Positions 8,135-22,109 of a stretch of 40,465 nucleotides of DNA are shown in pieces. Within the stretch, counting starts at the first letter, position 1, and each line of letters begins with the position of its first letter. This DNA comes from Gammaproteobacteria bacterium (GTDB lineage Bacteria; Pseudomonadota; Gammaproteobacteria; Steroidobacterales; Steroidobacteraceae): the NCBI GenBank assembly GCA_030037905.1, contig JASHPX010000014.1, positions 1-40,465 of the forward strand, written 5' to 3'. A program made the translations under genes and the position numbers. Below the pieces are notes generated by a model, which was given only the letters and a program-made list of their open reading frames with translations, had not been told where the DNA came from and did not search any database.

Positions 8135-8173
8135 GGTGGATCTGGGACCCTCGCGCGCGAGACATCTATGTAA

Positions 8174-9790
8174 TCAGAAATCGTGGTACTTATCCAATAG
8201 CGTAAGGGCGCCTCGGTTGGGAAGCTCGCCGGCAACGAAAGTATCGCCCATGTCCAGAATCTGCTCGGACTCATCGTTGAATGCCGGCCACGTCGGCAGG
8301 CCGGGGCCATTCGGGTCCCCAGTCTTGGCGAAGTTGGTCCAATAGGATTGGATTTCCTCTTCGATTCTGGTGTGAAGGGCCGCCTTCTGGGCGGGCTCGA
8401 ACTTCTTCAGCAGTTCAATCGGCGGGTAGCCGAAGACGTACGGCAGTTCTGCGCCATGTCCCGCTGCGTGTAACTTTACCCACGGAAGAAACGGCGGAAT
8501 GGTCGAAAAGCGATACAGGTAAACGTGCCGGACCCCCCGCCTCGCCTGAAATCTTGCCCAACTCACCATCCGCCAGCTCATGTCATCCGACGCGAGGCGC
8601 AGCTGCGACTGCCTGGCTTCGGCATCGGTGCGGCCCGGGTATAACTTCAAAAATCGCTCTGCAAAATCGCCATAGCGTGCCCGCACCTGCGCTCGATACG
8701 CAGCGGCGGACTCCGGAGGCCCGAACGCAAGGTTGACGCCTTCGTCGGCATTGGAGCCGACCAGCAGGTCCACAGGAACCTGCTTTCCGCGGCTGTAAAG
8801 GGCGCGCACCTGCGCGGGAATCAGGTGATCATCGATGTTCGCCCGCAGAGCGCTGACCCCGTCCTTCTCCATCGCACTATCCAAGGCCACGATCTTGGCG
8901 GCAGGAACGTTGCGCGCGTCAGCGATGGTGGAGGCGCCAAGCTTCTTCAAGAAGGCGATACCAGCCCGTTCTGCCTCAATGAGCGTCGGATCGGCATCGT
9001 GTCTGGCCTCTGTGCCAAACTCGCCACCGCTCGAGGCGATGACACGCCGGAATAGACCCTGCGCGGCCGGGCACACCATGAGCACGGATTCGCGATAGGC
9101 GCCCGCGGATTGCCCGAAGAGTGTCACGTTCCCAGGATCTCCGCCGAAGGCTGAGATATTTGCGTGTACCCACCTCAGTGCGGCGATCGCGTCGAGAAGG
9201 CCATAGTTGCCGGACGTTCCCGCCTCTTTGGTGAGCTGCGGATGCGCCAGCTGCCCGAACGCCCCTACCCGATAGTTGAACGTGACGACGACAACCCCTT
9301 TCCTTGCGAGCCTGTCTCCCCAGTAAAGTCGCAACGAGCCAGACCCGCTGAGCCCTCCGCCGCCATAAAGATAGACCATCACGGCAAGCCGTTCACCCGC
9401 CGTTTTGGCCGGGGTCCATATATTCAGATAGAGGCAGTCTTCGCTGTAGCGCTCCATCATCCCCGGCAGTGTGGGGCCGGCCTGCATGCAGGCCGGCTCG
9501 AACATCGTCGCGTCGAGAACGCCGGACCACGCGGCCGCAGGCCGAGGCGCTCTCCAGCGCAAATTGCCGACGGGAGGGGCAGCAAACGGAATCCCACGAT
9601 AGACCACGAGGCCATCATCGGCCACGCCCCGCACCAGACCCGACTGAGTGCGAGCCTGCAGGATCGGAGAAACGCTTTGCGGACTCGCGGCGCCCGTCGC
9701 CCCGATCGCAAGGCTAACGAATGCACCAAGCGCTATTCGGCGCGGCGCCCGCAGGCCCCAGTGATAGCTCCGGCCCAGGGACTCGTCCAT
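8174..9790 (-). CDS. Type B carboxylesterase, exported
   Basis: A 538-residue carboxylesterase/lipase-family serine hydrolase. A leader with a hydrophobic segment (about 19-35) suggests export. Family marks are YRGIPFAAPPVG, the EDCLYLNIWTP motif and the nucleophile elbow GQSAGA with Ser near 228; SNADEG and HGAELPYVFG supply the likely acidic residue and histidine. The oxyanion loop reads YGGGG where most members have HGGGF, a His-to-Tyr change. The start has a strong AGGAGGG site eight bases upstream. It faces the erythromycin-esterase remnant across a short divergent region, and the transketolase-like gene lies 39 bases downstream. Confidence 0.9.
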   Translation of the reverse strand: MDESLGRSYHWGLRAPRRIALGAFVSLAIGATGAASPQSVSPILQARTQSGLVRGVADDGLVVYRGIPFAAPPVGNLRWRAPRPAAAWSGVLDATMFEPACMQAGPTLPGMMERYSEDCLYLNIWTPAKTAGERLAVMVYLYGGGGLSGSGSLRLYWGDRLARKGVVVVTFNYRVGAFGQLAHPQLTKEAGTSGNYGLLDAIAALRWVHANISAFGGDPGNVTLFGQSAGAYRESVLMVCPAAQGLFRRVIASSGGEFGTEARHDADPTLIEAERAGIAFLKKLGASTIADARNVPAAKIVALDSAMEKDGVSALRANIDDHLIPAQVRALYSRGKQVPVDLLVGSNADEGVNLAFGPPESAAAYRAQVRARYGDFAERFLKLYPGRTDAEARQSQLRLASDDMSWRMVSWARFQARRGVRHVYLYRFSTIPPFLPWVKLHAAGHGAELPYVFGYPPIELLKKFEPAQKAALHTRIEEEIQSYWTNFAKTGDPNGPGLPTWPAFNDESEQILDMGDTFVAGELPNRGALTLLDKYHDF

Positions 9791-9811
9791 CTGCGGCCCT
9801 CCTTATAAGAT

Positions 9812-9829
9812 CGCTATGATAGAAGATAT
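9812..9829 (-). repeat. 18-bp element, copy 1 (partner at 14885)
   Basis: On the minus strand this reads ATATCTTCTATCATAGCG, 21 bases upstream of the carboxylesterase start. A 17/18 match lies on the plus strand at 14885-14902. Candidate shared operator or promoter element. Confidence 0.6.
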
Positions 9830-9884
9830 CCGCGAGCGGTGCGAGTACCCGATAATTCGAAGCGGAAGGCTCGGTAACTCTGGA

Positions 9885-10271
9885 ATGGCCGCTGCACTCA
9901 GATATGGCCTCGGCATCGTTCTCCTGCTGTCCCCGGCGATTGCCCATGGTGGGGACGATGCCTCTATCAAATGGGCCTCCGGCCACGCGAACCCGGTAAA
10001 GACACTCGATCCCGGAGCGAATTTCCAGGATCTGCTTGCACTGAAATCAATGATCGGCACGGCTCGTGTAGTCGCCCTCGGAGAGAACATACACGGCGCT
10101 CACGAGCCGATGGCCTCTCGGAATCGGCTGTTTCGCTTCCTGGTCCAGCAGATGGGATTCACCGCCATCGCCCTCGAGTCCGGATTCACGGAATCGAGGC
10201 TCGTGGATTCATTCGTCGGCGGGGGGCCGGGCGACTTCAGCAAGCGTCATCCTAGCGTGGCCGTAATGTAG
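9885..10271 (+). pseudogene. Truncated erythromycin-esterase-like protein (N-terminal fragment)
   Basis: The 128-residue product begins with a signal peptide (MAAALRYGLGIVLLLSPAIA) and then matches the start of the erythromycin esterase family: ARVVALGENIHGAHEP with the conserved Gly-Glu and His, and FLVQQMGFTAIALESGF. Full-length members are roughly 400 residues, and here the frame stops at 10271 after the first quarter. No continuation was recognised downstream, where a transporter gene begins at 10378. The catalytic region is therefore incomplete. The frame is open from 9816, but 9885 gives the clean signal peptide. Either a decaying gene cut by insertion of the transporter island, or a domesticated short version; decay is more likely. 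Confidence 0.7.
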
Positions 10272-10301
10272 TTGTAATCATTGGTGGAAGATTGCTAGAA
10301 T
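10272..10301 (+). promoter_or_regulatory. Candidate promoter of the first permease pair
   Basis: TTGTAA (10272-10277) and TAGAAT (10296-10301) are separated by 18 bases. The stretch is AT-rich against its surroundings and lies 76 bases before the permease A1 start. Confidence 0.45.
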
Positions 10302-10377
10302 TTTTTCTGGTCTACACTGAAATCTTCCAACTCCAACGATTCACAGCGCCGCAAGGGCGCCGCGTAGGCCATGCCGT

Positions 10378-11520
10378 ATGAAGTACTGGCCGCTGATCTG
10401 GTCCGGCATCTGGCGCAAGCCAGGCCGCACCCTGCTGATGTTCCTGCAGATCCTGGTCGCCTTCCTGCTGTTCGGCGTGCTGCAGGGGGTCAAGTCCGGG
10501 GTCGATCAGGCCGTTGGAGCTATTCGTGCGCAACTGTACTGGGTCTATCCAGCCGACGCAGGTACAACCCTGCCTCTGGGCCTGGAGCAACGCATCGCGG
10601 CCGTACCGGGCGTCAAGCACATCTATCCTGACAACTTTTTTGGCGCCATCTATCGACTCCCCACCCAGCAACTGCTCGTCGTGGCTACCAATTTCGATGC
10701 CGGGTGGGCCGGCAATCTGGACGTGGCAGCCAGCCCCGAGGCGATCGCCGCCCTCGCGCACACCCGCACCGGAGCGCTCGTCAGCACGGCGCTGCAGGAC
10801 CAGTACCACTGGAAGGTGGGCGACCAGATTCCGGTGTTATCGGGCACGGCGCAAAAGGATGGCAGTACGAGCTGGACCTTCGAGGACGTCGGCACATTCC
10901 GACCGCCGGATAGTGGCGCCCTGAGTCACGACCTCATCGTGCGCAACGACTATTTCGATGAGGCGCGTCTGAGCGGACGCGGTACCGTGGACCAGTACAT
11001 CGTCGAGGTCACCGACGCTGCGCAGGGCGAGCAAATCGCCCGCCGCATCGACGCGCTGTCCACGAACTCACCATTCCCGACGCGCACGGAATCCGTCCGT
11101 GCCGTCAACCAGTCGAACTATCAGAGGCTCGGGGACCTGAATTTCGTCGTGCATTCGATTGTCGGCGCGGCGCTGTTCGCATTGCTGATTGCGACCGCCG
11201 CACTAACGATGCAATCGGTGCGCGAGCGCACCACGGAACTGGCCGTCCTCAAGACCATGGGGTTTTCCGACCGCAAGCTGTTCGTTCTGCTGCTGCTCGA
11301 ATCCATTACGTTGTCCCTCGGCGCGGCGCTCATTGGACTGCTCGTCGCCTCGAAGATGATGCTCTGGGCTAACCGGTTCACGAATCTTCGTCTGAGCATG
11401 CCGTACGCGGTGCTGGCGGTAGGACTGGTGCTTGCATTTGTTCTCGCGCTGGCCAGTGCGAGCCCGCCGGCATGGCGCGCACAGCGTCTACAGGTTGCCG
11501 AGGCACTGGCGGGACGATGA
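10378..11520 (+). CDS. ABC transporter permease, MacB/FtsX type (A1)
   Basis: A 380-residue inner-membrane permease of the MacB/LolC/FtsX family: one N-terminal membrane helix (about 18-38), a large extracytoplasmic domain, and three C-terminal helices (about 258-280, 305-330, 345-365). The FtsX segment includes VRERTTELAVLKTMGFS. Such permeases work in pairs with an ATPase to move substrates by periplasmic mechanotransmission rather than as classical channels. It is followed after 13 bases by B1. It is a full-length paralogue of A2 (15469), with identical length and a matching N-terminus (MKY-PLIW-GIWRKP). No LolD/MacB-type ATPase gene is adjacent. Confidence 0.9.
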   Translation: MKYWPLIWSGIWRKPGRTLLMFLQILVAFLLFGVLQGVKSGVDQAVGAIRAQLYWVYPADAGTTLPLGLEQRIAAVPGVKHIYPDNFFGAIYRLPTQQLLVVATNFDAGWAGNLDVAASPEAIAALAHTRTGALVSTALQDQYHWKVGDQIPVLSGTAQKDGSTSWTFEDVGTFRPPDSGALSHDLIVRNDYFDEARLSGRGTVDQYIVEVTDAAQGEQIARRIDALSTNSPFPTRTESVRAVNQSNYQRLGDLNFVVHSIVGAALFALLIATAALTMQSVRERTTELAVLKTMGFSDRKLFVLLLLESITLSLGAALIGLLVASKMMLWANRFTNLRLSMPYAVLAVGLVLAFVLALASASPPAWRAQRLQVAEALAGR

Positions 11521-11533
11521 GGAGCCCGGATCC

Positions 11534-12706
11534 ATGAGGGCCCTCCGTCAGATTGCCCTGTTGCTGCAGATGAGCCTCGCGGGTGCCCGCGGTCACCCGG
11601 GTTCCTACTTCGTCGCCGTCATCTGCATCACCACCGTGGTGGGCGTACTGGTGGCGATGCTGTCGATGGGTACCGGAGTGCAGGCTCTGGCGGTGCGGGG
11701 CGCGCGTGCGGATCGGGCCCTGGTGGAATCGAGCGGGGCGCAGAGCCCCTTCACCAGCAACATCAACCCCTCCGACGTCGGCACGATCGAGAGCATACCG
11801 GGCGTCGAGCATGGGCCCGGCGGTGCGCCACTGGCGACGGCCAATTCCATTGTGCCCGCCACAGTGGAGAGGCGCGGCGATCATATGTTCGTCGCGATTC
11901 CGCTCTATGCAGTAGATCAACGCTTCTTCGCGGTGTATCCCGAAGTGCACGTGGTCGAAGGGCGCATGTTCCGACCGGGTCTTGACGAGTTGATTGTGCA
12001 AAGTTCCCGCCGATCGCAGTTTCAGGGTCTGCAGATAGGCGATCGCATACACTTGCACGGCGTGAATTGGACCATCGTCGGTGCATACGAAGTGCCAGGG
12101 GGCAACTGGGACGGTCTGATCGGCGATCTGAATACCGTCACGTCCGCGTTCCGGCGCAATACACGTCAGCTCGTCAGCGTAGTGCTACAGCCGCCGCTGG
12201 CCGCGAGCTTCGCATCCATCGCTGCGGGCCTCAAGGCGAATCCAACCTTTGACGTCGAGGTGCATCACGAGGTCCAGCTTCTCGATCAGCAGAGCAAGCC
12301 CTTTCGGGGCATCCTGGATTTCGTGAGCTACTTCGTCGGGGTGGTCATGGGGCTGGGCGCGACTCTGGGTGCCGTCAATATCTTCTACTCGATCGTCGAT
12401 GCACGACGGCGCGAGATGGCGACGCTGCGGGCAATCGGCTTCGGAGCTGGATCAATAGGGATTGCGACACTGCTCGAGTCACTGATGGTGGCACTTCCCA
12501 GTGCCATTCTGGGGCTGCTGGCCGCCTGGATATTCTTCAACGGCAATCAGGTCAGTTCGGCGGGCCAGAGCTTCCAGCTGGTGATCTCGACCCGCCTGGC
12601 ATTGCTGGGGATCGCCTGGGCACTCGTCATGGGATTCATAGGCGGTCTATTGCCGGCGCTTCGCACCGCGCGCGCATCGGTCACCGTGGGCCTGGGCGCT
12701 AGCTGA
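11534..12706 (+). CDS. ABC transporter permease, MacB/FtsX type (B1)
   Basis: A 390-residue partner of A1 with the same topology: an N-terminal helix (about 24-46), a periplasmic domain, and three C-terminal helices ending in FIGGLLPALRTARASV. The FtsX stretch includes REMATLRAIGFGAGSIG. The start ATG 11534 is chosen because GAGGAG (11518-11523), overlapping the A1 stop, gives a well-spaced ribosome binding site; the open frame upstream overlaps A1. Paralogue of B2 (16622). A1 and B1 form one translation unit. The substrate is unknown. Confidence 0.9.
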   Translation: MRALRQIALLLQMSLAGARGHPGSYFVAVICITTVVGVLVAMLSMGTGVQALAVRGARADRALVESSGAQSPFTSNINPSDVGTIESIPGVEHGPGGAPLATANSIVPATVERRGDHMFVAIPLYAVDQRFFAVYPEVHVVEGRMFRPGLDELIVQSSRRSQFQGLQIGDRIHLHGVNWTIVGAYEVPGGNWDGLIGDLNTVTSAFRRNTRQLVSVVLQPPLAASFASIAAGLKANPTFDVEVHHEVQLLDQQSKPFRGILDFVSYFVGVVMGLGATLGAVNIFYSIVDARRREMATLRAIGFGAGSIGIATLLESLMVALPSAILGLLAAWIFFNGNQVSSAGQSFQLVISTRLALLGIAWALVMGFIGGLLPALRTARASVTVGLGAS

Positions 12707-12811
12707 GGGCACGCCAATCCTGCTCACGCCGGACCAAATGCTCCTCCGATCCATATACCTCATCCAGCCGTCCCGCCGCCGATACATGCCGCTCCCGGAG
12801 AGTGTGCGGCC

Positions 12812-12940
12812 CTGGTTGAAGGCGTGGGCGTGCAGCCGGATGTGGCAGTGTCACCGTGCATCCGTTTCTGTCGCGGCAACGATCCACAGTTGTCCGCAGC
12901 CCTGCAGCTGGTCCGAAGACATATTTCCCGTTCAAGTTGA
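12812..12940 (+). pseudogene. Possible C-terminal remnant of an S41-type processing peptidase
   Basis: In one frame the gap between B1 and the next gene reads LVEGVGVQPDVAVSP followed by GNDPQLSAALQLV and a stop. This strongly recalls the end of C-terminal processing (S41) peptidases, which carry an L-EG-GV-PDV segment and then DPQL..AL. No start or catalytic part is present. The preceding 100 bases (12707-12811) show nothing else I recognise. Short length keeps confidence low. Confidence 0.35.
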
Positions 12941-12976
12941 TACGTGACCGCGCGACGATTCGGCCGAGGCTTCACG

Positions 12977-14038
12977 ATGCCTATCATTCCGGGAGCTTGG
13001 ACGGACCAGCAACCCTCAGTGCGCGTCTGCTGGCTCGAACTCCATAACGCGATGCGACGATGGCCGCTCTTGGCGCCGGCCTTCGCTCTCTCGCTCGCCG
13101 CAATCGGCGCATTCGTCGGTTTCTCGCCGGTGCGAGTTGGCGTGGCAGAGGCGGCAAATCATCCGATTCTGGTGGTCGCGATTACGGGTCTCTTGTTCGC
13201 GATGATGATCCAGCGACGTCGCCGGCGGCTCGCGCGCAATCGCCATCGCGATTGGCTGGCGACGCTCCCGAGAGAGTTTCCCCTGAGCGCCAGAGCGGCC
13301 TACTTCCCCTTTCTGGGGTGGGCATGCGCCGCCTTCGCGCTCTTCACTGCGGGCATCATCTCGAGGCTGGCGGTGGTTTCCGCGGGAAAGGTCGTATTCG
13401 CGTCCGGTGTGGGCCTTCTGGCTGCGGTCACGGCAGTTGCCGCCGCTGCAGCTCTGCAGCGCCGGCCGGGACTGAATCAGAAACGAGCAAGACGGCCATC
13501 TCGATTTGCACCGCCGCCGTCGCGGTATGCGGCCGTGCGCAAGCCGCGCACTGGGTGGGCGACGCACGCGAGCCTCGTTCCACTGGGGTACTGGCCAATG
13601 GCCCAGGCGAAGTTCTGGGAGAGACCGAAGGTGCGCGCACGCGCACTGCTCCCGCTTCTGCTCAGCCTACCCGACGTTGTCGGCGCGGCCGCTCTGGCGG
13701 CGGTCTTGGTCTGGCTGGTCACTATACACCTCGGCAATCTCTTGGTCGGAGTGGTGCGTGTGGCGTTCGCGGCGGCATGCTGGCTTGCACCGACACCGGT
13801 CGGGGCAGCGCAGTTCACATTTGCAGTCTCGCATCGCGCACTCGTCGGAGTGATCGCAAGCTGTGCGCTCCTGGTCTTCATGGTCGCGTTAGCGGGTGGT
13901 ACTCGCGCTCTTCGCGTTTCCGTTGAATCCGTTGTCATCTGGATCGCGGTGGCGTGCATTCTGAGCACAGCAGCATGTCTGATTGCCCTTCGAAGCAAGT
14001 CGGTTGCTCGTTCCGTGGTGCATCGATGGTTACGCTGA
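12977..14038 (+). CDS. Polytopic membrane protein, probable ABC exporter membrane subunit
   Basis: A 353-residue protein with about seven to eight hydrophobic segments (for example LLAPAFALSLAAIGAFVGF, ILVVAITGLLFAMMI, VVGAAALAAVLVWLV) and arginine-rich cytoplasmic loops (QRRRRRLARNRHR). No family was recognised. The next gene encodes an ABC-2-style ATPase and overlaps this one by 13 bases, so it is probably that ATPase's membrane partner (inference). Start ATG 12977 has GAGG seven bases upstream; the frame is open to 12944. The sequence shows no FtsX signature, so it belongs to a different exporter from the flanking permease pairs. Confidence 0.65.
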   Translation: MPIIPGAWTDQQPSVRVCWLELHNAMRRWPLLAPAFALSLAAIGAFVGFSPVRVGVAEAANHPILVVAITGLLFAMMIQRRRRRLARNRHRDWLATLPREFPLSARAAYFPFLGWACAAFALFTAGIISRLAVVSAGKVVFASGVGLLAAVTAVAAAAALQRRPGLNQKRARRPSRFAPPPSRYAAVRKPRTGWATHASLVPLGYWPMAQAKFWERPKVRARALLPLLLSLPDVVGAAALAAVLVWLVTIHLGNLLVGVVRVAFAAACWLAPTPVGAAQFTFAVSHRALVGVIASCALLVFMVALAGGTRALRVSVESVVIWIAVACILSTAACLIALRSKSVARSVVHRWLR

Positions 14039-14835
14039 CGGCAGCGACGGAGCCGGCACCGGTGAACGCGGCGGCCGTGCTGCGCATGGCTGCCATCACC
14101 GCCGGATATGGCGACGAGGCTGTTCTTCGCGATGTGAGCCTCGAGATACAGCTGGGGGAATGGGTCGCGCTCCTCGGGCCGAATGGCAGCGGAAAATCGA
14201 CGCTGCTCTACTGCGTCGGCGGAATGCTGCAACCGACGGCGGGGGAGATCGACATCTGCGGTTGCGCGCTCGCGCGCGATGCTCGCGCCGCAAAGCGCTT
14301 ACTGGGCTATGGATGCCCACCCGAGCGGTTACCGGGCCTGCTGACGGGCCGGCAGTGTCTGGAGGTCTATGCTGCGGCCAAGGGAATTCGGGAGATCGAC
14401 GCCGACGTGCTCGAGCTCATGAAGACCTTTGCGCTCGAGCCATTGCTCGATCAGTTCGTCGATACCTATTCGCTGGGTACACGCCAGAAGCTCGCGGCGC
14501 TTCTCGCGCTGATCGGTGCACCAAAGCTCATCGTGCTCGATGAGGCGTTCAACGGGCTCGACCCGGCCAGTGGACGGGCACTCAAGCGCCATCTTCTCGC
14601 CCTCGTCGCGGCTCGGCGCGTCAGCGTGCTCCTCGCCACACATGCGCTCGATATCGTAGAGCGCCACGCCGACCGCGCGGTGCTGCTCCTTGCCGGAAGA
14701 ATCGCTCACGTCTGGAACGCCGTGGAACTTTCCTCATTGCGGAGCTCTGGGGATGGCTTGGAAGAAGCGATTGCCCTCGCATCCGAGGCGCATCTGGGAC
14801 GGGAAGCTCTTTCCCTCCACCATCGAGACGAGTAG
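14026..14835 (+). CDS. ABC transporter ATP-binding protein
   Basis: A 269-residue ATPase with Walker A GPNGSGKST near residues 51-59, Walker B LIVLDEAF and the switch histidine in LLATHALD. The signature loop is degenerate, YSLGTRQKLA in place of LSGGQ, as in many ABC-2/CcmA-type exporters. It couples ATP hydrolysis to export through the membrane protein encoded just upstream, whose 3' end it overlaps. ATG 14026 is chosen over ATG 13954 since it begins just before the conserved first strand. It could in principle also energise the A1-B1 and A2-B2 permeases, but MacB-type ATPases carry a canonical LSGGQQQR, which is absent here. Confidence 0.88.
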   Translation: MVTLTAATEPAPVNAAAVLRMAAITAGYGDEAVLRDVSLEIQLGEWVALLGPNGSGKSTLLYCVGGMLQPTAGEIDICGCALARDARAAKRLLGYGCPPERLPGLLTGRQCLEVYAAAKGIREIDADVLELMKTFALEPLLDQFVDTYSLGTRQKLAALLALIGAPKLIVLDEAFNGLDPASGRALKRHLLALVAARRVSVLLATHALDIVERHADRAVLLLAGRIAHVWNAVELSSLRSSGDGLEEAIALASEAHLGREALSLHHRDE

Positions 14836-14884
14836 TTAGCGCGCTCGCACTCGACCTATCCGGTAGAACTCGCGTGACCGACGA

Positions 14885-14902
14885 ATATCTTCTATGATAG
14901 CG
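14885..14902 (+). repeat. 18-bp element, copy 2 (partner at 9812)
   Basis: Reads ATATCTTCTATGATAGCG, inverted relative to copy 1 with one mismatch. It lies in the gap after the ATPase gene, 112 bases before the LprI-like gene; in both cases the element points toward the downstream gene. Confidence 0.6.
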
Positions 14903-15014
14903 GTATTAAGAGATCCGGTCAATGTCAGCCAATTCGTGCATCGAGACCGCTACGGCACCGCTCCTGGCGCGAGCATAGGCTCTGATCAGCATCCGACGCA
15001 GGCTCGACCTCGTT

Positions 15015-15428
15015 ATGGAGAAGTATCCTTCACGGCGTCTCGGCATTGCTATTCGAATTGCCTTCGTTATCACTGTGAGTCTCGTCATTTGGCGTTGGCC
15101 GAAGGCCGTTCACGTCTCACCCAGCTTCGATTGCGCCAAAGCCACCATTCCCACGGAAAGGACAATCTGTGGGGATCCAGACTTGGCGAAAGTCGATGTG
15201 GACTTCGCCATCTACTATGCGGACAACCTTGCAACGGCTGCCATCAATGGCGATAGGCCGACCCTGGCTGCGCTCGTGGCAGGACAGCGGGACTTTATGA
15301 TTGCTCGCAATCGATGCGGCAGAAATAAGCTCTGTGTGATGCGCGTATATGGTGATCGGGAGAAGCAGCTGACGAAGCTGAGCGGTCTGCCGGCGCCCGA
15401 CTTTTTCGGTGAAGTCACTGTCTATTAA
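15015..15428 (+). CDS. LprI-like (DUF1311) small exported protein
   Basis: A 137-residue protein with an N-terminal hydrophobic segment (about 10-27), either a signal peptide or an anchor, and then the lysozyme-inhibitor LprI N-terminal-like pattern: PSFDCAKATIPTERTICGDP, a DLAKVDVDFAIYY helix, and QRDFMIARNRCGRNKLCVMR. Four cysteines (in FDCA, TICG, NRCG, LCVM) fit two disulfides. Family members are periplasmic; some inhibit lysozyme, but most are uncharacterised. It stands between the ABC exporter and the second permease pair on the same strand, suggesting an envelope-defence or envelope-maintenance role (inference). Confidence 0.75.
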   Translation: MEKYPSRRLGIAIRIAFVITVSLVIWRWPKAVHVSPSFDCAKATIPTERTICGDPDLAKVDVDFAIYYADNLATAAINGDRPTLAALVAGQRDFMIARNRCGRNKLCVMRVYGDREKQLTKLSGLPAPDFFGEVTVY

Positions 15429-15430
15429 CC

Positions 15431-15449
15431 CAGGGGCAGCTCGCCCCTG
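15431..15449 (+). terminator. Short hairpin before permease A2
   Basis: CAGGGGC pairs with GCCCCTG around a 5-base loop, immediately after the LprI-like stop and 19 bases before the A2 start. No U-tract follows. It could be an attenuator or simply a 3' end. Confidence 0.4.
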
Positions 15450-15468
15450 AGCAGCGGCAGGCTGTCGC

Positions 15469-16611
15469 ATGAAATATGTTCCTCTCATCTGGCTCGGTAT
15501 CTGGCGCAAGCCGGTGCGCACCACACTCATCCTGCTGCAGGTCGCCGTGGCGTTCGCGCTGTTCGGAGTTCTGCAGGGCATGAAGACGGGCGTGGATCAG
15601 GTGGTGGCCGATATCCGCCCGGATCTACTCTTCGTCCGTGTATCCTTGGACAGCGCATCGCCCCTGCCTGTCGCCTACGCTGATCGAATCAGATCGATTC
15701 CTGGCGTAAAGACCGTAACATTCGCCAACGAACTGGTCGGCACCTATCAGCGGCCGACTCAGCTGGTGGCTGTGATCGGAATCGAAAACAACGAGGTGTG
15801 GAAAACACTTTTGCCGCAAATAGTAACGATTCAGCCCAAAGACCTTCACGCCCTGCAGAATGCCCGGATCGGCGCGCTCATCACCCCCTACGATGCCAGG
15901 AAATACGGCTGGCGCATCGGGGATCGTATCCCCATAACATCGACCACCCTGCAGAACGACGGGTCGGGAACCTGGATGTTCGACATCGTAGGCTTCGCCA
16001 CGCCAGGTGCGAAACGGTCTACCAACATCTTCGCCAACTACGACTACCTCGATACAGCTGGAGCGCAGAACAAAGGGACGGTAGCATTCTTCCTGGTCGT
16101 CGTTTCCGATCCGCAGCGGGCGACGGCAGTAGGCGCCGCGATCGATCGGACGTTCGCTAATTCACCCGATGAGACCACAACGCAGCCGTACAGCGTGCTC
16201 GTAGAACAAGCGGTACGGCAAATCGGCAACCTGAACTTCGTGATCCGTTCCGTCGTCAGCGCGGTGCTCGTGGCGCTCGTGTTTTCGATCGCGACCATGA
16301 TGATGCAGACGGTGCGTGAGCGCACTCCGGAGTTGGCAGTGCTGAAGACTCTGGGCTTCAGCGATCCTGCGGTTTTCCTACTGGTGGTGGTCGAGGCGCT
16401 AATCGTGTGCATAGCCGGGGCGCTCCTCGGACTGGGGCTGGCGACGAGGATCTTCCCGATTGCCGCGAGATTCCTGCCAGGTCTCTCCATGCCCGGGATT
16501 GTCCTCGCGCTCGGGCTGATCGGAGCGGTGCTGGTCTCGTTGATCAGTGTTTCTCTGCCGGCCTCGAGGGCAGCCAGGCTGCAAGTGATCGATGCGCTTG
16601 CGCGCCGGTGA
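15469..16611 (+). CDS. ABC transporter permease, MacB/FtsX type (A2)
   Basis: A 380-residue paralogue of A1 with the same plan: an N-terminal helix (about 18-38), a periplasmic domain rich in Tyr/Pro/Asn motifs, and three C-terminal helices. The FtsX stretch includes VRERTPELAVLKTLGFSDPA. The start is ATG 15469 with GGCAGG about eight bases upstream. B2 follows after 10 bases. Divergence from A1 lies mostly in the periplasmic domain, suggesting that the two pairs handle different ligands (inference). Confidence 0.9.
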   Translation: MKYVPLIWLGIWRKPVRTTLILLQVAVAFALFGVLQGMKTGVDQVVADIRPDLLFVRVSLDSASPLPVAYADRIRSIPGVKTVTFANELVGTYQRPTQLVAVIGIENNEVWKTLLPQIVTIQPKDLHALQNARIGALITPYDARKYGWRIGDRIPITSTTLQNDGSGTWMFDIVGFATPGAKRSTNIFANYDYLDTAGAQNKGTVAFFLVVVSDPQRATAVGAAIDRTFANSPDETTTQPYSVLVEQAVRQIGNLNFVIRSVVSAVLVALVFSIATMMMQTVRERTPELAVLKTLGFSDPAVFLLVVVEALIVCIAGALLGLGLATRIFPIAARFLPGLSMPGIVLALGLIGAVLVSLISVSLPASRAARLQVIDALARR

Positions 16612-16621
16612 GAGCGGACCC

Positions 16622-17797
16622 ATGAGCCTCGCAAGGCAGTTCGGTGCCCTCCTGCGCATGAACCTTGCAGGCGTTCCGCAACGCCTCGGACTCGTGTGCA
16701 CCATTGTCGTGGGGGTGACGTGCGCGGTCGGGGTGCTCGTATCCATGCTCGCTATGGGAATGGGAGCCCGACGGGAGGCCATGGGCAATGTGCGTCCCGA
16801 CCGAGCCATTCTAACGAGCCTCGACGCTCCGCGGGCGCTGCCCATACTCAGCAGCATCCCGAAGGACACCGTTGCGCTGATCCGTACGCTGCCCGGCATA
16901 CGACGCAACGCCAGAGGTGAACCGATCGTCGTGGCTGAGTCGCTGGTAGTCATCCCCGTCGTTAGCAAGGCCGATCGGGAGCAGGTAACCGTTCAGATAG
17001 TCGGCGCGACCTCCGGTCTCACCGATTATGCGCCCGAGTTGCATCTCACTTCGGGGCGCGTGTTCCGGCCTGGGTTGCGGGAACTGATCGCGAGCAACAC
17101 GTGCGTGCAGCAATTCCCGGATTTCGCCGTTGGCGACAGGAGGCGCATACGCGGCGGTGAGTGGCTCGTGGTCGGAAACTTCGATCTCGGACGGGTGGAG
17201 GGCGTCTGTACGGTCTACGCGGATGCCGACACCATTCTGTCCAGCTTCGGCCGCACGAATTACAACGAAGTGAATGTGATGCTGCAATCGACTGCGTCCT
17301 TCAGGGACTTGACCACTGCGCTCAACGCAAACCCGACGCTTCGGGTTCGGGCCAGGTCTGAAGCGCAGGTGGTCGCGGATGAAACGCGGCAAGTCAACGG
17401 CATCCTGAACTTTGTCAGCTACTTCGTGGGAGGCATTATGGCGCTGGCAGCAACCATCGGAGCGGCCAACTCGTTGTATGCGATCATCGATAGCCGCCGA
17501 CTCGAGCTGGCCACGCTGCGCGCGATGGGCTTCGGCGGTACATCGATCATTGCATCCGTTCTGTCGGAGTCGATCCTTCTTGCGCTGCCGGGTGCCCTGA
17601 TCGGCGCCCTCTTGGCGCGGTTGCTTTTCAACGGATTGCAAGCCAGCCCTTTTGGAACAACCATTCACCTCGCCGTGACGGCTTCACTGGCTTACCTGGG
17701 TGCCGGCTGGGCCCTCGGCATCGGCGTACTCAGCGGGTTCCTGCCGGCCCTGAGAGCCGCGCATGTACCCGTAGCCGTCGCATTGCAGGCGATATGA
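16622..17797 (+). CDS. ABC transporter permease, MacB/FtsX type (B2)
   Basis: A 391-residue paralogue of B1, partner of A2. It has an N-terminal helix (about 24-45), a periplasmic region and three C-terminal helices ending FLPALRAAHVPVAVAL. Conserved parts shared with B1 include ILNFVSYFVGGIMAL and ELATLRAMGFGG. ATG 16622 is taken because it matches the B1 start and follows A2 by 10 bases; the open frame from 16592 lies inside A2. The next gene is on the opposite strand and convergent. Confidence 0.9.
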   Translation: MSLARQFGALLRMNLAGVPQRLGLVCTIVVGVTCAVGVLVSMLAMGMGARREAMGNVRPDRAILTSLDAPRALPILSSIPKDTVALIRTLPGIRRNARGEPIVVAESLVVIPVVSKADREQVTVQIVGATSGLTDYAPELHLTSGRVFRPGLRELIASNTCVQQFPDFAVGDRRRIRGGEWLVVGNFDLGRVEGVCTVYADADTILSSFGRTNYNEVNVMLQSTASFRDLTTALNANPTLRVRARSEAQVVADETRQVNGILNFVSYFVGGIMALAATIGAANSLYAIIDSRRLELATLRAMGFGGTSIIASVLSESILLALPGALIGALLARLLFNGLQASPFGTTIHLAVTASLAYLGAGWALGIGVLSGFLPALRAAHVPVAVALQAI

Positions 17798-17907
17798 TCG
17801 CCGAGCAGCTGGAATCCGGAGGCGAGGGGTCCGCCCGACGTCGACATGGCTTCGACAGCGGCGCTCGCGTCGCGAATGAACCTCGGGCACCCGATGTGGC
17901 AATGCAG

Positions 17908-18639
17908 TCAGCTGAACGACGGCGGGCGTTTCGATTCGGATCGGAATTTCATCGAGCTGCGATATTTCATCCACGCAAGCGGGACCAGCGCGGGGATCGC
18001 CTTGCTCAAGGTTCGCGCGATCTCTTGCGGAAGCAGCTTCGTCCCAAAGCCGATACCCGCCTCGAGGAACAGCGGCTTGGGTCCGCCTCGGACACCGAAC
18101 CCCACATTGACGAGTGCGACCACGATGCAGAGCAGCAGTATCCCTACTATGGGCCAGCGCAAGGAAATCCGCTGGCGATACGCGAACAATCCGAATCCCA
18201 TGGCCAGCGAAATGGGCAAGATCCAAAGAAAGAGCGCGACCAGGCCGGCGTTGATGTCCGCCGCGAGAACCGCGGAAACTCGAGCATCCTGAGGATGAGG
18301 CCAGATTGCGTGCGTCGCAGCTGCCACCGCCGCCATCAGCCCGATTCCCAAGCCGACGAAGCACACTATCGGTGCAAGCCCATAGGCAACGGGAAAGCGG
18401 TGCGACCAGCTTTGCAGTTCCTCCCGGCTCGCGAACCGTTCGATGATCGCGTCACTCGATCCGATGGCCGCATCGGCCCCGCGTCGTGCCTCCTCAGCCG
18501 ACTCTCCGCGAGCGAGCGCCTGTTCCAGGAGATCACGATGGTGGGCCTCGATCTCGATCTCTGCGCGCTGCGCGTAGCGCCGCGCCACACCGCGCCGCAC
18601 GAGTGCCTCACCGAGGTTCCGAAAACGGCGTTCACTCAT
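17908..18639 (-). CDS. PadR-coupled membrane protein
   Basis: A 243-residue protein. The N-terminal part is helical and charged (MSERRFRNLGEALVRRG, then HHRDLLEQALARGESAEEAR), resembling the prefix segment found on proteins coupled to PadR regulators. It is followed by about four membrane helices (for example GLAPIVCFVGLGIGLMAAV, FLWILPISLAMGFGLFAY, WPIVGILLLCIVVALVNVGF). The function is unknown. The ATG at 18639 overlaps the padR-type gene's end by 8 bases, so the two are translationally coupled. In related arrangements such proteins accompany permeases whose expression PadR controls. Confidence 0.7.
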   Translation of the reverse strand: MSERRFRNLGEALVRRGVARRYAQRAEIEIEAHHRDLLEQALARGESAEEARRGADAAIGSSDAIIERFASREELQSWSHRFPVAYGLAPIVCFVGLGIGLMAAVAAATHAIWPHPQDARVSAVLAADINAGLVALFLWILPISLAMGFGLFAYRQRISLRWPIVGILLLCIVVALVNVGFGVRGGPKPLFLEAGIGFGTKLLPQEIARTLSKAIPALVPLAWMKYRSSMKFRSESKRPPSFS

Positions 18640-18970
18640 GACTCGTCGCCCCCAAAATGAGTTCGACGCCGGCACTGACGTGCCGCCAGTTCTCGATCAG
18701 GCGCTCGAGTCGCCGGCGGCCGCGCGCGGTCACGGCGTAATAGATCCGTGTGCGCCCGTCGACTCGCTCGGAGCGGGCGCGTAGCAGCCCGCGCGCTTCC
18801 AAGGCGTGAAGTGCCGGATAGAGTACACCCTCGCCGAGATCCAGCGCGCCGCGACTGCCGAGCTTGAGCGCCCGAGCGATCTCGTAACCGTACATCTCCT
18901 GCTGCGCGAGTAGCCGCAGCACCACCAGCTCCGGCACGCCGGGCATCAGCGTCGGGATTCTCTCGCCCAC
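18632..18970 (-). CDS. PadR-family transcriptional repressor
   Basis: A 112-residue winged-helix protein with the full PadR pattern: LVVLRLLAQQEMYGYEIAR, GEGVLYPALHALEARGLL and RIYYAVTARGRRRLERL. The GTG at 18970 is the upstream start; the TATAAT of its promoter ends only five bases before it, so translation from GTG would be nearly leaderless. An ATG at 18946 (104 residues) would leave a leader of about 23 bases and is a real alternative. PadR proteins repress their own operons and nearby transporters by binding short dyads; a dyad overlaps this promoter. Confidence 0.9.
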   Translation of the reverse strand: MGERIPTLMPGVPELVVLRLLAQQEMYGYEIARALKLGSRGALDLGEGVLYPALHALEARGLLRARSERVDGRTRIYYAVTARGRRRLERLIENWRHVSAGVELILGATSHE

Positions 18971-18975
18971 GTGCC

Positions 18976-19003
18976 ATTATACCTTGCCAAGCGAGGTATG
19001 CAA
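18976..19003 (-). promoter_or_regulatory. padR promoter with overlapping dyad operator
   Basis: On the minus strand TTGCAT (19003-18998) and a perfect TATAAT (18981-18976) are separated by 16 bases. An inverted repeat ATACCT-N9-AGGTAT at 18979-18999 covers the spacer and part of the -10, where a repressor would block polymerase. It also lies upstream of the degenerate permease module that starts at 19086 on the other strand. Confidence 0.6.
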
Positions 19004-19085
19004 CGCATACGCTCCGCTCGATGTTGCAGCCGGCGCTTCTGTTCGCAGACAGGTCTCCGGTAGAGATGACACGCATGCATACCCA

Positions 19086-20051
19086 ATGAATCGAATCGTG
19101 CTGGACGCCCTGCGCCGGCGGTGGTTACGGACCCTGCTCGTGGGGCTGTCCACGCTGATCGCGTTCGTGCTGCTCGGCTTCTTTCTGGCAATTCGCCACG
19201 GATTTGCGACCGGACTGACGCAGGTGGGTGCTGATCTGCTGCTGCTCGAGCCAGTCGCCGGCAGCTCTCGGCTGACGATCGCGGTGTTGTCGGCCGTAAG
19301 ATCTTTCCCCGGAGTACGCTCAGCCGTTGGAGATCGACAGCGTGCTCGGCAAGCGCCGCGGCGTAAGCCCGTCGAGCGATGTCAACCTGCACCTCGAATA
19401 CATTCGCCGCTGGGCACATGACGATTTCATCGACTTTATGTTCGTGCGGGTAGAGGAAGCGCAACAGGCCGATGCAATGGCCCGCGCAATCGAGCTGAAA
19501 TTTGTCAATAGCGCGACGCCGCTGAGCACGCAGAGCTTCGAGTCGCTGCTGCAGGGGATGGCCGAGCGACTCGCCGATGTCAACGCACTGACCTTCGTGG
19601 TCATCGGGGCGAGCCTGTTCGGTCTGTTCCTCATCTGTTTCAATACTTTGATCCATTCGGTATCGGAGCGGTTGGGGGAGTTTGCGCTGCTGAGGGCGGT
19701 TGGATTCGCTCCGCGGCGGCTCATAGGAATGGTGTTTCTCGAGGCGCTAGTTGTGATCGTCCCCGCCGCCTCCGTTGGCACGCTCTGCGCCCTGCTCGTC
19801 ATCCGGGCATTCGCCGGGCAGAAACTGAACCTTCCGGGCATCATGCTGACACCCGCCGCAGTGGCGCAGTGCGCGCTCACCGCGCTTGGGCTCGCGATCC
19901 TCTCTTCGGTGTTGCCCGGGCTGCGGATCGTGCGTATGAACTGCGCCCGGGCGCTGCGCAAGGGGCCCTCGGCATGGGATTGATCGGAGGACTGTATCCG
20001 GCCCTGCGGGCCGCGCGTCTGCCGATCGCGGCGGCCTTGAAGGACATTTGA
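19086..20051 (+). pseudogene. Collapsed third permease module (A3 with tail of B3)
   Basis: Three permease pieces lie in order. Bases 19086 to about 19325 encode an N-terminal helix (LLVGLSTLIAFVLLGFFLAI) and the start of the extracytoplasmic domain, up to FPGVRSA. About 19321-19983, in the next frame, encodes the end of that domain and all three FtsX helices (LGEFALLRAVGFAPRRLIGM). Bases 19974-20051, in a third frame, encode only the last 25 residues of a B-type permease (MGLIGGLYPALRAARLPIAA). Compared with A1/A2 (380 residues) roughly 130 codons of the middle are missing, and nearly all of B3. Two deletions, each with an out-of-frame junction, explain this. Not expected to give a working transporter. 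Confidence 0.8.
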
Positions 20052-20063
20052 GATCGTGCCTGA

Positions 20064-21167
20064 CTACTCAGCGCCCCTGCGCGTCTCGACGTGGTGGTCG
20101 ATCCAGGCGATCAGCAGGTCCGCGATCTGGTTGCTGTTCTTGTCCTGCATCAGCATGTGGCTGTTGCCTTTGATGCCGAGGTCGGGCAAGTGCATCATCT
20201 CGGCATCTCCGCCGGCCTGCTCGAGCTGCGCGACGAACCTGTTGCAGCTCTCGAAGGCGCCCATCCAGTTGAGGGGCTTCGTCACATCGGCGAGGTGATC
20301 GCCGAACATGACGAGCGTCGGGATCTTTGCGAGCTTTGCGAGCTGCGCCTGCGTGAGAGGCGGGCAGCCCGTCTCGATCGTGACGAGCCCTCGAATGCCC
20401 GTGGGATCGATGAGGGCCGCTTGCTCGGGAAAGAAGCCGGATTCCGAGTGCCCCACGAGGATCGCTCCGTGCAGCTTCACACCAAGAGCCGCCATCTGCG
20501 TCCAGGTCGGATTCGCGTTCTGCGGCAGTGTCGAGTTGAGGTCCGGGATCATCTGCTTGTAGAGCTCGTCCACGGCCTCGAGCGGGAACTGCTCATCGGG
20601 GAACGCCTCGCCGAACTTGGGGCCGAAGCGGAACACCGTCCAGGCGAGCTGGTGGGTCGCATCGAGGATCGCCGGCATGCGTGCACTGGCAAGCGTCCCC
20701 GCGCGCACCGCGCTGAAGTCCGACGGATCAAAGCCTGAGCGGGCGCGGGAAACCTGGTCCACCAGGTAGACCGAGCGACCCTTGCGAAGGAAGTACTCGC
20801 TCCAGCCCATGCGTCCATCGGGGGTCGTCTCCCAGGTCTTGCTGCTCAGGCAGCAGCCATGCACGAACACGACCGGCACGTGCCGAGCGCCCGCCATCGG
20901 GATCTGGTACTGCACGTACATCTGATTGACGGTGATATCGCCGGTCTGCGCCGGGGCGGGGCCGTTCGAGGGCTGGCTCACGGTCTTGGTGACGCCGCCG
21001 ACGAAGAAGCTGCCCTGCTCCTTCAGGACGAGTGGCCCTGTGAGTTGCGCAAAGGCCGGCGGCGCTGCAAGCAGCGCAGCGGCGGCGCACACGCGCAGCG
21101 CGATGAGGAGTCTTCCGTCGCCGGACAGCCCGAATGGTCGCCTGATCGTGCCGAGGTGAACGCGCAT
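20064..21167 (-). CDS. Exported alpha/beta-hydrolase esterase
   Basis: A 367-residue hydrolase. It has a signal peptide with likely cleavage after AFA (residue 40), the oxyanion motif VHGCCLSSKTWE near residues 92-103, the nucleophile elbow GHSESG with Ser near 241, an acidic residue in VMFGDHLAD and a histidine in GNSHMLMQD. The CC pair beside the oxyanion hole is uncommon. ATG 21167 is chosen since AGGAGGT lies eight bases upstream. Substrate unknown; periplasmic or secreted. The 289 bases between its start and tRNA-Gln show no further gene. Confidence 0.85.
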   Translation of the reverse strand: MRVHLGTIRRPFGLSGDGRLLIALRVCAAAALLAAPPAFAQLTGPLVLKEQGSFFVGGVTKTVSQPSNGPAPAQTGDITVNQMYVQYQIPMAGARHVPVVFVHGCCLSSKTWETTPDGRMGWSEYFLRKGRSVYLVDQVSRARSGFDPSDFSAVRAGTLASARMPAILDATHQLAWTVFRFGPKFGEAFPDEQFPLEAVDELYKQMIPDLNSTLPQNANPTWTQMAALGVKLHGAILVGHSESGFFPEQAALIDPTGIRGLVTIETGCPPLTQAQLAKLAKIPTLVMFGDHLADVTKPLNWMGAFESCNRFVAQLEQAGGDAEMMHLPDLGIKGNSHMLMQDKNSNQIADLLIAWIDHHVETRRGAE

Positions 21168-21456
21168 GAGCTGTACCTCCTGTAGTAGCTGCCATGGCGC
21201 TGAAATTGATCGACGTGTCGGCGGCAGAACTTCTGATTGAGCCCTGCATCGCCGCAGTTTCACCTGATCGCACTCCCAAATTCGGCAACGGCCGAATCCG
21301 GGCTTGCTTGTGGCGATGCGGCTACTGATGGTCCTCTCGCCGCCGGTGGTATCTCTTCGGATTCGTCATCGTCCTAACGACCGTCCGTCCATTTATACCA
21401 TGTCGCTTGCATGGTGCACCGCATTCAGCCCGCCGGTGTCTTCGCCGATGCTGAAA

Positions 21457-21530
21457 TGGCTGGGGGACTAGGATTCGAACCTAGGTTAACGGAGTCAGAG
21501 TCCGCTGTCCTACCACTGGACGATCCCCCA
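21457..21530 (-). tRNA. tRNA-Gln, anticodon CUG
   Basis: Read on the minus strand this is 74 bases including encoded CCA. A 7-bp acceptor stem (TGGGGGA with TCCCCCA), discriminator G, an anticodon loop CTCTGAC giving CUG at 34-36, and a T-arm with GTTCGAATCC are all in place. The T/Gln-style 5' TGGGG start is typical for tRNA-Gln. It lies downstream of rpsI on the same strand beyond a long hairpin. Confidence 0.95.
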
Positions 21531-21589
21531 GTAACACAGTGCAGGCGCCGGGGCTGGCCATCCCCGCGCTGCAAGGATACGGATTACGT

Positions 21590-21656
21590 TGGAGGTATCC
21601 AACCCTCCTGAAGATGTTCGTCAGATGAACATCTTCAGGAGGGTTGGATACCTCCA
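21590..21656 (-). terminator. Perfect 30-bp hairpin after rpsI
   Basis: Arms 21590-21619 and 21627-21656 are perfect complements around a 7-base loop. It sits between the rpsI stop and tRNA-Gln, so it probably ends the rplM-rpsI message, but no U-tract follows on the minus strand (aacgtaatcc). Longer than a normal intrinsic terminator. Confidence 0.8.
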
Positions 21657-21677
21657 GTGCAGTACGTCTCCTTGAAC

Positions 21678-21713
21678 GGCGGCCCAGGCGGCCCCGGCGG
21701 CCCAGGTGGCCCG
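21678..21713. repeat. Four 9-bp GC repeats after rpsI
   Basis: GGCGGCCCA-type units occur four times in tandem, starting three bases beyond the rpsI stop codon (21717-21719). Non-coding on the rpsI strand. Confidence 0.8.
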
Positions 21714-21716
21714 ATG

Positions 21717-22109
21717 CTAGCGCTTCGAGTACTGGGGTCCGCGCCGCGCCTTGCGCCGGCCGACCTTCTTGCGCTCCACCTCGCGGGCATCCCGCGTCAC
21801 GAAACCTGCCTGTCGCAGCGGCTTGCGCAGCGTCTCGTCGTAACGTATCAGAGCGCGCGCTATGCCGTGACGGATGGCGCCGGCCTGCCCGGTGATGCCC
21901 CCGCCGTCCACGTGCGCCACGATGTCGAACTTGTCGGCGAGCTGCACCGTCTCGAGTGGTTGGCGCACGATCATGCGCCCGGTCTCACGGCCAAAAAACT
22001 CCTCGAGCGGCCGATCGTTGACGGTGATGTGACCGGTGCCCGGCTGCAGGTAAACGCGCGCCGTCGAGGTCTTGCGCCGGCCGGTGCCATAATGTGAATT
22101 CTCTGGCAT
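21717..22109 (-). CDS. rpsI: 30S ribosomal protein S9
   Basis: S9 binds 16S rRNA in the head of the small subunit, and its C-terminal tail reaches the P-site tRNA. The 130-residue product has the family start [14 protein letters not shown], the [19 protein letters not shown] segment and the invariant basic C-terminus [18 protein letters not shown]. Full length, with no oddities. It lies 38 bases after rplM and forms the conserved rplM-rpsI operon. Confidence 0.98.

What the first reader, a model, noticed from the sequence alone, without database searches (positions are those of the whole stretch)
10378..20051. Two intact and one collapsed MacB/FtsX permease pairs without a matching ATPase
A1-B1 (10378-12706) and A2-B2 (15469-17797) have the same order, near-identical lengths (380/390 and 380/391 residues) and spacing; a third pair survives only as fragments at 19086-20051. 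MacB/LolCDE systems normally carry a LSGGQ-type ATPase, and usually a periplasmic adaptor, in the same operon. Neither is present. The only ATPase (14026) has a degenerate signature loop and belongs with another membrane protein. The pairs may share one remote ATPase or use the local one.
Basis: partly seen in the sequence, partly recalled or inferred. Interest (0 to 1): 0.62.

Follow-up and report, generated by a model that had tools for sequence, protein, structure and literature searches.

The report
Permease pairs sharing a distant ATPase
This bacterium carries several two-gene membrane pumps that have lost their own motor gene but stay intact, and comparison with relatives suggests that one motor encoded elsewhere in the genome drives them.

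Summary
In detail: two intact MacB/FtsX-type permease pairs (A1-B1, A2-B2) and the wreck of a third, with no cognate ATPase or adaptor beside them. They are not isolated. The same genome has two more such pairs (contigs C207, C290) and one complete operon of the family (C104: outer-membrane factor, adaptor, LolD/MacB-type ATPase, A, B), holding its only cognate ATPase. Among 134 A copies examined, 77 have the ATPase directly upstream, 48 have none in the fetched neighbourhood, 7 sit in rearranged or extended operons, 2 are cut. A and B trees agree, so pairs moved together. ATPase-less pairs keep their frames, the ATPase-docking helices and purifying selection. Two near-complete relatives (G004, G061) have an adaptor-ATPase operon with no permease beside it, and A-B pairs on other contigs without ATPase. 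Most likely one ATPase (and adaptor) serves several permease pairs in trans; this is inferred, not shown. The local ATPase (13954-14835) belongs to a different two-gene transporter. ATPase sharing is known for importers, and ATPase-less permeases are known as ADOP. Split MacB-type pairs with a free-standing energising module look like a new variant.

The parts
10378..11520 (+). A1, MacB/FtsX-type permease subunit (ATPase-less pair 1)
   Evidence: PF02687 47 bits, PF12704 32 bits; A-family profile 546 bits
11534..12706 (+). B1, second permease subunit of pair 1
   Evidence: PF02687 50 bits, PF12704 40 bits; start codon seen at 11534; predicted MacB topology
15469..16611 (+). A2, permease subunit (ATPase-less pair 2)
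   Evidence: PF02687 47 bits; A-family profile 558 bits; predicted MacB topology with helix 286-294 between TM2 and TM3
16622..17797 (+). B2, second permease subunit of pair 2
   Evidence: PF02687 49 bits, PF12704 33 bits (frame from 16592); start codon seen at 16622
19092..19325 (+). A3 remnant, N-terminal part
   Evidence: A-family profile positions 5-83, 41 bits
19387..19962 (+). A3 remnant, C-terminal part, other frame; about 106 model positions are missing between the parts
   Evidence: A-family profile positions 190-384, 133 bits
19965..20045 (+). B3 remnant, last 27 model positions only
   Evidence: B-family profile positions 367-393, 30 bits
18632..18970 (-). PadR-type regulator divergent from the A3 remnant; possible regulator
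   Evidence: PF03551 72 bits; TIGR03433 78 bits, below its cut-off of 101.8
17908..18675 (-). membrane protein overlapping the PadR gene, probably co-transcribed with it
   Evidence: no Pfam or NCBIfam match at E 0.01
12944..14038 (+). M, membrane subunit of a separate ABC transporter (not part of the pairs)
   Evidence: no Pfam match at E 0.01; homologues in 3 other genomes, each beside a local-type ATPase
13954..14835 (+). ATPase of the separate M transporter (not cognate to A-B)
   Evidence: PF00005 81 bits; 63-64% identical homologue beside M in G018, G137 and G038; 63.5 bits to the cognate ATPase profile

Best explanation
A1-B1 and A2-B2 are two-subunit Type VII (MacB-like) permeases that descend from an adaptor-ATPase-A-B operon and have lost the energising genes. 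Each A-B dimer probably recruits a dimer of the single cognate ATPase encoded in trans on contig C104 through its conserved cytoplasmic coupling helices. It probably also uses that operon's adaptor and outer-membrane factor to push a substrate out of the periplasm by mechanotransmission. Shown: family, pairing, absence of ATPase and adaptor, conservation, and existence of one cognate ATPase elsewhere in the genome. Inferred: docking of that ATPase, use of its adaptor, and export as the function. The substrate is unknown.
For: One cognate ATPase in the genome, in an OMF-adaptor-ATPase-A-B operon on C104. The cognate class is sharply separated from other ABC ATPases in 17 genomes: 372 bits or more against 262 or less. 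In G004 (97% complete) and G061 (100%) an adaptor-ATPase pair stands with no permease beside it; their A matches (6 and 2) lie on other contigs that carry no ATPase match of that search. A and ATPase occur together: 96 genomes both, 4 A only, 2 ATPase only, 48 neither, of 150. ATPase subtypes track A subtypes: 17 of 17 subtype-1 complete operons have a subtype-1 ATPase. Genomes with subtype-1 ATPase-less pairs have a subtype-1 ATPase in 11 of 13, against 11 of 56 others (Fisher p 2e-5). The coupling-helix consensus is nearly the same in 47 ATPase-less and 83 other A copies and among the least variable segments. dN/dS of A2 and B2 against G137 is 0.25 and 0.14. A and B trees agree (r 0.94, 0 of 1000 permutations). 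In G125 a complete operon nests in the ATPase-less clade.
Against: No direct test of ATPase-permease contact. G080 and G107 hold subtype-1 ATPase-less pairs but only a subtype-2 ATPase; G061 has one subtype-2 pair and only a subtype-1 ATPase. G026 and G059 have such pairs and no cognate ATPase found; they are 87% and 62% complete. Genomes are related, so the Fisher values overstate independence. A third pair has decayed, and A1 has a long branch and no close orthologue (50% identity at best). Mean column entropy is somewhat higher in ATPase-less copies. Seven of 48 ATPase-less copies have some more distant ABC ATPase match (44-97 bits, one of them a remnant) in the fetched DNA, two of these being the window's local one. 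The assembly has 403 contigs, 93.5% completeness and 5.2% contamination, so a second ATPase cannot be excluded.
Confidence: 0.6

Rival explanations
1. The pairs are relics: after losing the ATPase they no longer transport and are on the way to decay, as the third pair already is.
For: A3-B3 is broken. A probable erythromycin-esterase fragment lies upstream. G080 keeps a 54-position remnant of the cognate ATPase just upstream of an ATPase-less pair.
Against: 31 of 33 rows of one clade of the A tree lack the ATPase, from 14 genomes (support 92, not starred), with full-length frames. dN/dS of A2/B2 (0.25/0.14) lies within the range of seven ATPase-bearing pairs, 0.09-0.29. Coupling helices are kept.
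Confidence: 0.15
2. The pairs work without any ATPase, as membrane-embedded sensors or scaffolds, as might be imagined for ADOP proteins.
For: Weak sequence kinship to ADOP (TIGR03434, 36-44 bits). PadR-type genes near 3 of 48 such copies.
Against: The ATPase-docking helices are about as conserved as in ATPase-bearing pairs. 96 of 100 genomes with A have the cognate ATPase, and free-standing adaptor-ATPase pairs persist.
Confidence: 0.12
3. The pairs are driven by a non-cognate Type VII ATPase such as LolD, YbbA or a MacB domain.
For: Nine ATPases in the genome match the cognate profile at E 1e-60; the eight runners-up score 210-247 bits. G026, G059, G080 and G107 lack a subtype-1 ATPase in the data.
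Against: All eight runners-up lie beside FtsX-type permease genes of their own or are fused to them. The subtype match between ATPase and A argues for a dedicated partner.
Confidence: 0.1
4. The pairs use the local ATPase 13954-14835.
For: It lies between the two pairs on the same strand.
Against: Its homologues sit beside M in 3 of 3 other genomes; 63.5 bits to the cognate profile.
Confidence: 0.03

Closest known systems
MacAB-TolC and split MacB-like systems (Type VII ABC; S. pneumoniae 5xu1)
   Same: Predicted topology of one TM helix, periplasmic domain, three TM helices, and helices where MacB has its major and minor coupling helices; top structural matches are LolCDE, MacB 5gko and 5xu1. 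Complete relatives have an adaptor in 64 of 77 and in a few an OMF homologue.
   Different: Window pairs are two different permease subunits with neither ATPase nor adaptor beside them; MacB has an N-terminally fused ATPase (PMC5985334, passages).
LolCDE
   Same: Two different permease subunits plus a LolD-type ATPase as building plan.
   Different: Far below the LolC/E cut-off (51.9 bits at best against 362); in most complete relatives an adaptor precedes the ATPase; a separate set on C56 is probably the genome's LolCDE (inference).
ADOP family duplicated permeases (TIGR03434)
   Same: MacB/FtsX permeases without adjacent ATPase, several copies per genome (ADOP traits recalled).
   Different: ADOP carries two permease domains in one protein of about 800 aa; here two genes. 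Scores 36-44 bits against a cut-off of 622.
Shared ('housekeeping') ATPases of importers, e.g. FhuC in S. aureus (also MsiK in Streptomyces, recalled and seen only in a reference title)
   Same: One ATPase energises several permeases encoded elsewhere (PMC10147376, passages).
   Different: Those are importers; here a MacB-type family, with the adaptor apparently shared too.

Membership tests
Type VII (MacB-like) ABC permease | FtsX-like C-terminal domain PF02687 above cut-off | tested here: met
   4 of 4 proteins
Type VII (MacB-like) ABC permease | MacB-like periplasmic core PF12704 above cut-off | tested here: inconclusive
   3 of 4; A2 gave no match at E 0.01, though its model matches LolCDE and MacB folds
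Type VII (MacB-like) ABC permease | Four TM helices, large periplasmic domain after TM1, coupling helix between TM2 and TM3 | tested here: met
   Predicted models of A2 and B1, mean pLDDT 79 and 78, pTM 0.57; best PDB matches E 1e-18 and 5e-19
MacAB-TolC tripartite exporter | Cognate ATPase in the same operon or protein | tested here: not met
   None upstream of A1 or A2
MacAB-TolC tripartite exporter | Periplasmic adaptor in the same operon | tested here: not met
   No adaptor match for 48 ATPase-less copies, window included
MacAB-TolC tripartite exporter | Assembly with adaptor and outer-membrane channel | not testable with these tools
   Adaptor and OMF exist on C104; assembly needs experiment
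LolCDE | LolC/LolE model TIGR02212 above cut-off | tested here: not met
   A2 51.9 and A1 21.8 bits, cut-off 362
ADOP | TIGR03434 above cut-off, two permease domains in one chain | tested here: not met
   36-44 bits against 622; single-domain proteins of 380-391 aa
ADOP | No ATPase gene of its own adjacent | tested here: met
   the local ATPase is assigned to M
Shared-ATPase transporter (works like) | One ATPase energises several permeases in trans | tested here: inconclusive
   Genomic evidence from G000, G004, G061; no biochemical test

The most novel reading that the evidence does not exclude
Bacteria of this family run a plug-in export system: one adaptor-ATPase module, in some genomes encoded entirely on its own, energises a fleet of exchangeable MacB-type permease pairs scattered over the genome. 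Each pair would carry its own substrate specificity, as in shared-ATPase importers but for tripartite export.
Probability: 0.5. Interest if true: 0.68.

Novelty: new variant of a known kind. Interest (0 to 1): 0.5.

Why it matters
MacB-type pumps are usually recognised by their operon, so permease pairs without an ATPase are easily dismissed as orphans or broken. If one ATPase and adaptor serve many pairs, export capacity can diversify by duplicating two genes only, and deleting one ATPase gene would silence many exporters at once. The natural split in G004 and G061 gives a direct test of whether Type VII permeases can share a motor, and may bear on how the ADOP permeases of Acidobacteria are powered.

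Tried and rejected
Local ATPase as partner: rejected. Simple 'broken operon' reading: disfavoured by constraint and by the large ATPase-less clade. LolCDE and ADOP membership: rejected on scores. A recurrent neighbour that would reveal a substrate: clustering of neighbours gave none apart from the pair itself and a group that in ATPase-less loci holds distant ABC ATPases (5 loci). ATPase remnants upstream of other ATPase-less copies: 1 clear case in 48 (G080); the only other hit is the window's local ATPase. PadR association: 3 of 48 copies with a narrow 3-seed profile that did not grow, so weak.

Fission of its own operon as the origin of the G061 split: not supported. The free ATPase of G061 is closest by score to the free ones of G001 (80%) and G004 (76%), with operon ATPases of other genomes nearly as close (76-77%); those beside the sister pairs of its own A-B (L110, L114, L133) are not among the eight best. 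The three free ATPases are not one clade in the best tree, though strongly supported branches do not exclude it. G025 and G076 at first looked like further free ATPases, but their contigs end within 200 bases of the ATPase, so they are not counted. Seven literature searches, seen as listings, showed no paper on ATPase-less MacB-type pairs with a shared ATPase; one search listed one species description (PMC11573002, listing only) that holds the phrase 'duplicated orphan permease', and one search found no paper at all.

Dropped rows and limits: L031 is the same contig as L074 and was counted once. The dN/dS row L130-L131 compared non-orthologous copies and is ignored (20 pairs tried). I fetched 120 regions of the longer list, which was itself cut off and scored at most 12 candidates per genome; I kept the multi-copy genomes and left out several single-copy ones, so 48 of 134 overstates the share of ATPase-less copies. 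Of the 48, 43 have B directly downstream; 4 end at the contig edge and 1 (G111) has no B found. Regions fetched later are outside the 134; of these, pairs in L198, L199 and L201 (G043, G004) have no ATPase or adaptor match in the fetched DNA, L201 starting at a contig edge, and L200 (G137) is a complete operon cut within A.
Full report
WHAT IS THERE. The window is contig C320 of a 4.51 Mb, 403-contig genome (93.5% complete, 5.2% contamination). The stretch L074 of G135, a genome of the same family group, is contained letter for letter in a Steroidobacter MAG contig (L031), so the family is most likely Steroidobacteraceae, Gammaproteobacteria. A1, B1, A2 and B2 are open and of the stated lengths; all match FtsX above cut-off. 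A third pair is broken: two A3 pieces in different frames and the last 27 positions of B3. No adaptor or cognate ATPase is near.

THE LOCAL ATPASE. M (12944-14038) and the ATPase (13954-14835) overlap. M has homologues in 3 of 97 other genomes searched, and in all 3 a 63-64% identical ATPase lies beside it. This is a separate transporter. Its ATPase scores 63.5 bits to the cognate ATPase profile; accepted cognates score 319 or more.

THE WIDER FAMILY IN THE SAME GENOME. The genome has 51 FtsX matches at E 1e-3 and 58 ABC_tran matches at E 1e-6. Five A copies match the A profile at E 1e-40: A1, A2, C207, C290 and C104. C104 is the only complete set: OMF, adaptor, ATPase, A, B. C207 and C290 lack the ATPase. 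C207 is 58% (A) and 66% (B) identical to A2-B2.

RELATIVES. The A profile matches 100 of 150 family genomes at E 1e-30. I fetched 120 regions. With the window's genome and three outside loci this gives 134 distinct A copies: 77 with the cognate ATPase within 900 bases upstream, 2 cut by contig ends, and 55 without (L031 counted once). Of the 55, 7 have the cognate ATPase elsewhere in the same locus, leaving 48 in 17 genomes; 43 of the 48 have B directly downstream. Adaptors precede 64 of the 77. In other families of the order, 46 of 52 A copies have the ATPase directly upstream; three do not but have a complete set elsewhere in the genome, one is rearranged, one is near a contig start, and one weak match (G268) has no cognate ATPase. 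ATPase-less copies are thus concentrated in the window's family.

CO-OCCURRENCE. Of 150 genomes, 96 have A and cognate ATPase, 4 A only (G026, G059, G068, G070), 2 ATPase only (G025, G076) and 48 neither. The single A of G068 starts at base 18 and that of G070 lacks its start, so I take both to be cut by contig ends; the contigs of G025 and G076 end just after the ATPase. Of the 17 genomes with ATPase-less copies the cognate ATPase is present in 15; the two without are 87% and 62% complete. G004 (97%) and G061 (100%) have adaptor plus ATPase alone; the next gene downstream is unrelated in both. The 6 A matches of G004 at E 1e-40 and the 2 of G061 lie on other contigs without an ATPase match; a seventh, weaker G004 match was not located. 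G001 has, besides a complete operon, a second ATPase alone beside a methyltransferase-like gene in a cluster with a condensation-domain-like protein (labels recalled from sequence).

TREES. ATPase-less copies cluster: one clade of 33 rows (support 92) has 31 without ATPase, from 14 genomes, and the label needs 8 changes against a shuffled mean of 34.5 (FastTree, 118 rows). C290 and one G061 pair are separate cases beside ATPase-bearing sisters. In G125 (same genus) a complete operon nests in the ATPase-less clade. A and B distances correlate at 0.94 over 118 pairs (0.90 for 42 ATPase-less ones), 0 of 1000 permutations reach this, and 82 of 115 splits are shared. A cognate ATPase clade (SH-aLRT 96) matches one half of the A tree: all 17 complete operons in that half have an ATPase in it. 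Of the 42 ATPase-less pairs in the tree, 39 are of this subtype 1 and 3 of subtype 2. Eleven of 13 genomes with subtype-1 ATPase-less pairs have a subtype-1 ATPase, against 11 of 56 others (p 2e-5; 11 of 15 if G026 and G059 are counted as lacking it, p 2e-4). Genomes are related, so these p values are optimistic. G080 and G107 are exceptions, and G061 has one subtype-2 pair with only a subtype-1 ATPase.

CONSTRAINT. The coupling-helix consensus is VRERTPELAVLKTLGFSDR in ATPase-less and other A copies alike (47 and 83 sequences), and ARRREIATLRAIGF against ARTREIATLRAIGF in B (42 and 76); these are among the least variable segments in both groups. Mean column entropy is slightly higher without ATPase (A 1.83 against 1.72; B 1.79 against 1.55). 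A2/B2 against G137: dN/dS 0.25/0.14; seven ATPase-bearing pairs run from 0.09 to 0.29 and eleven ATPase-less pairs from 0.10 to 0.30.

STRUCTURE. Models of A2 and B1 (mean pLDDT 79 and 78; pTM 0.57 each; six-sequence alignments) show the MacB topology including helices at the coupling positions. Top PDB matches are LolCDE, MacB and 5xu1. TM-scores normalised by the query are moderate (0.31-0.73 in the top 50). Only single chains were predicted.

MECHANISM. In MacB, ATP-driven dimerisation of the ATPase domains pushes the major coupling helix up on TM2 (PMC5985334, passages). The window pairs keep that helix and lack the motor; the genome has one matching motor. I therefore propose docking in trans. 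Known precedents are importers such as those energised by FhuC (PMC10147376, passages).

NOVELTY. Seven literature searches, read as listings apart from passages of the two papers above, showed no report of ATPase-less MacB-type pairs with a shared ATPase. The library lacks most subscription papers. The account of ADOP as orphan permeases is recalled, apart from the family name and scores.

Noticed in passing
L040-L041 (G000 contig C135): An adaptor-like gene and an ATPase are followed on one strand by a long array of another MacB-type permease kind, 18 FtsX domains in alternating frames of about 440 and 410 aa, with a second ATPase near the far end: apparently one or two motors for many pairs in cis.
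   Followed up: partly
L196:7689-8384 (G001 C185): A cognate-type ATPase stands alone beside a methyltransferase-like gene in what looks like a condensation-domain (NRPS-like) gene cluster, with a PadR-like gene nearby.
   Followed up: partly
L155:6273-6557 (G080): A 54-position remnant of the cognate ATPase lies directly upstream of an intact A-B pair, a snapshot of ATPase loss.
   Followed up: yes
window 9816-10271: Frame matching only the first 34 positions of erythromycin esterase (PF05139, 19 bits, below cut-off): probably a truncated remnant.
   Followed up: no
window 6000-22000: G+C is lower here (0.57-0.65 per kb) than in the flanks (mostly 0.66-0.71), with tRNA-Gln at 21457-21530 near the edge: possibly an acquired region.
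   Followed up: no
L131, L154, L136, L130: Extended operons with a further A copy after the first pair behind a single ATPase (G111, G102, G018, G080).
   Followed up: partly
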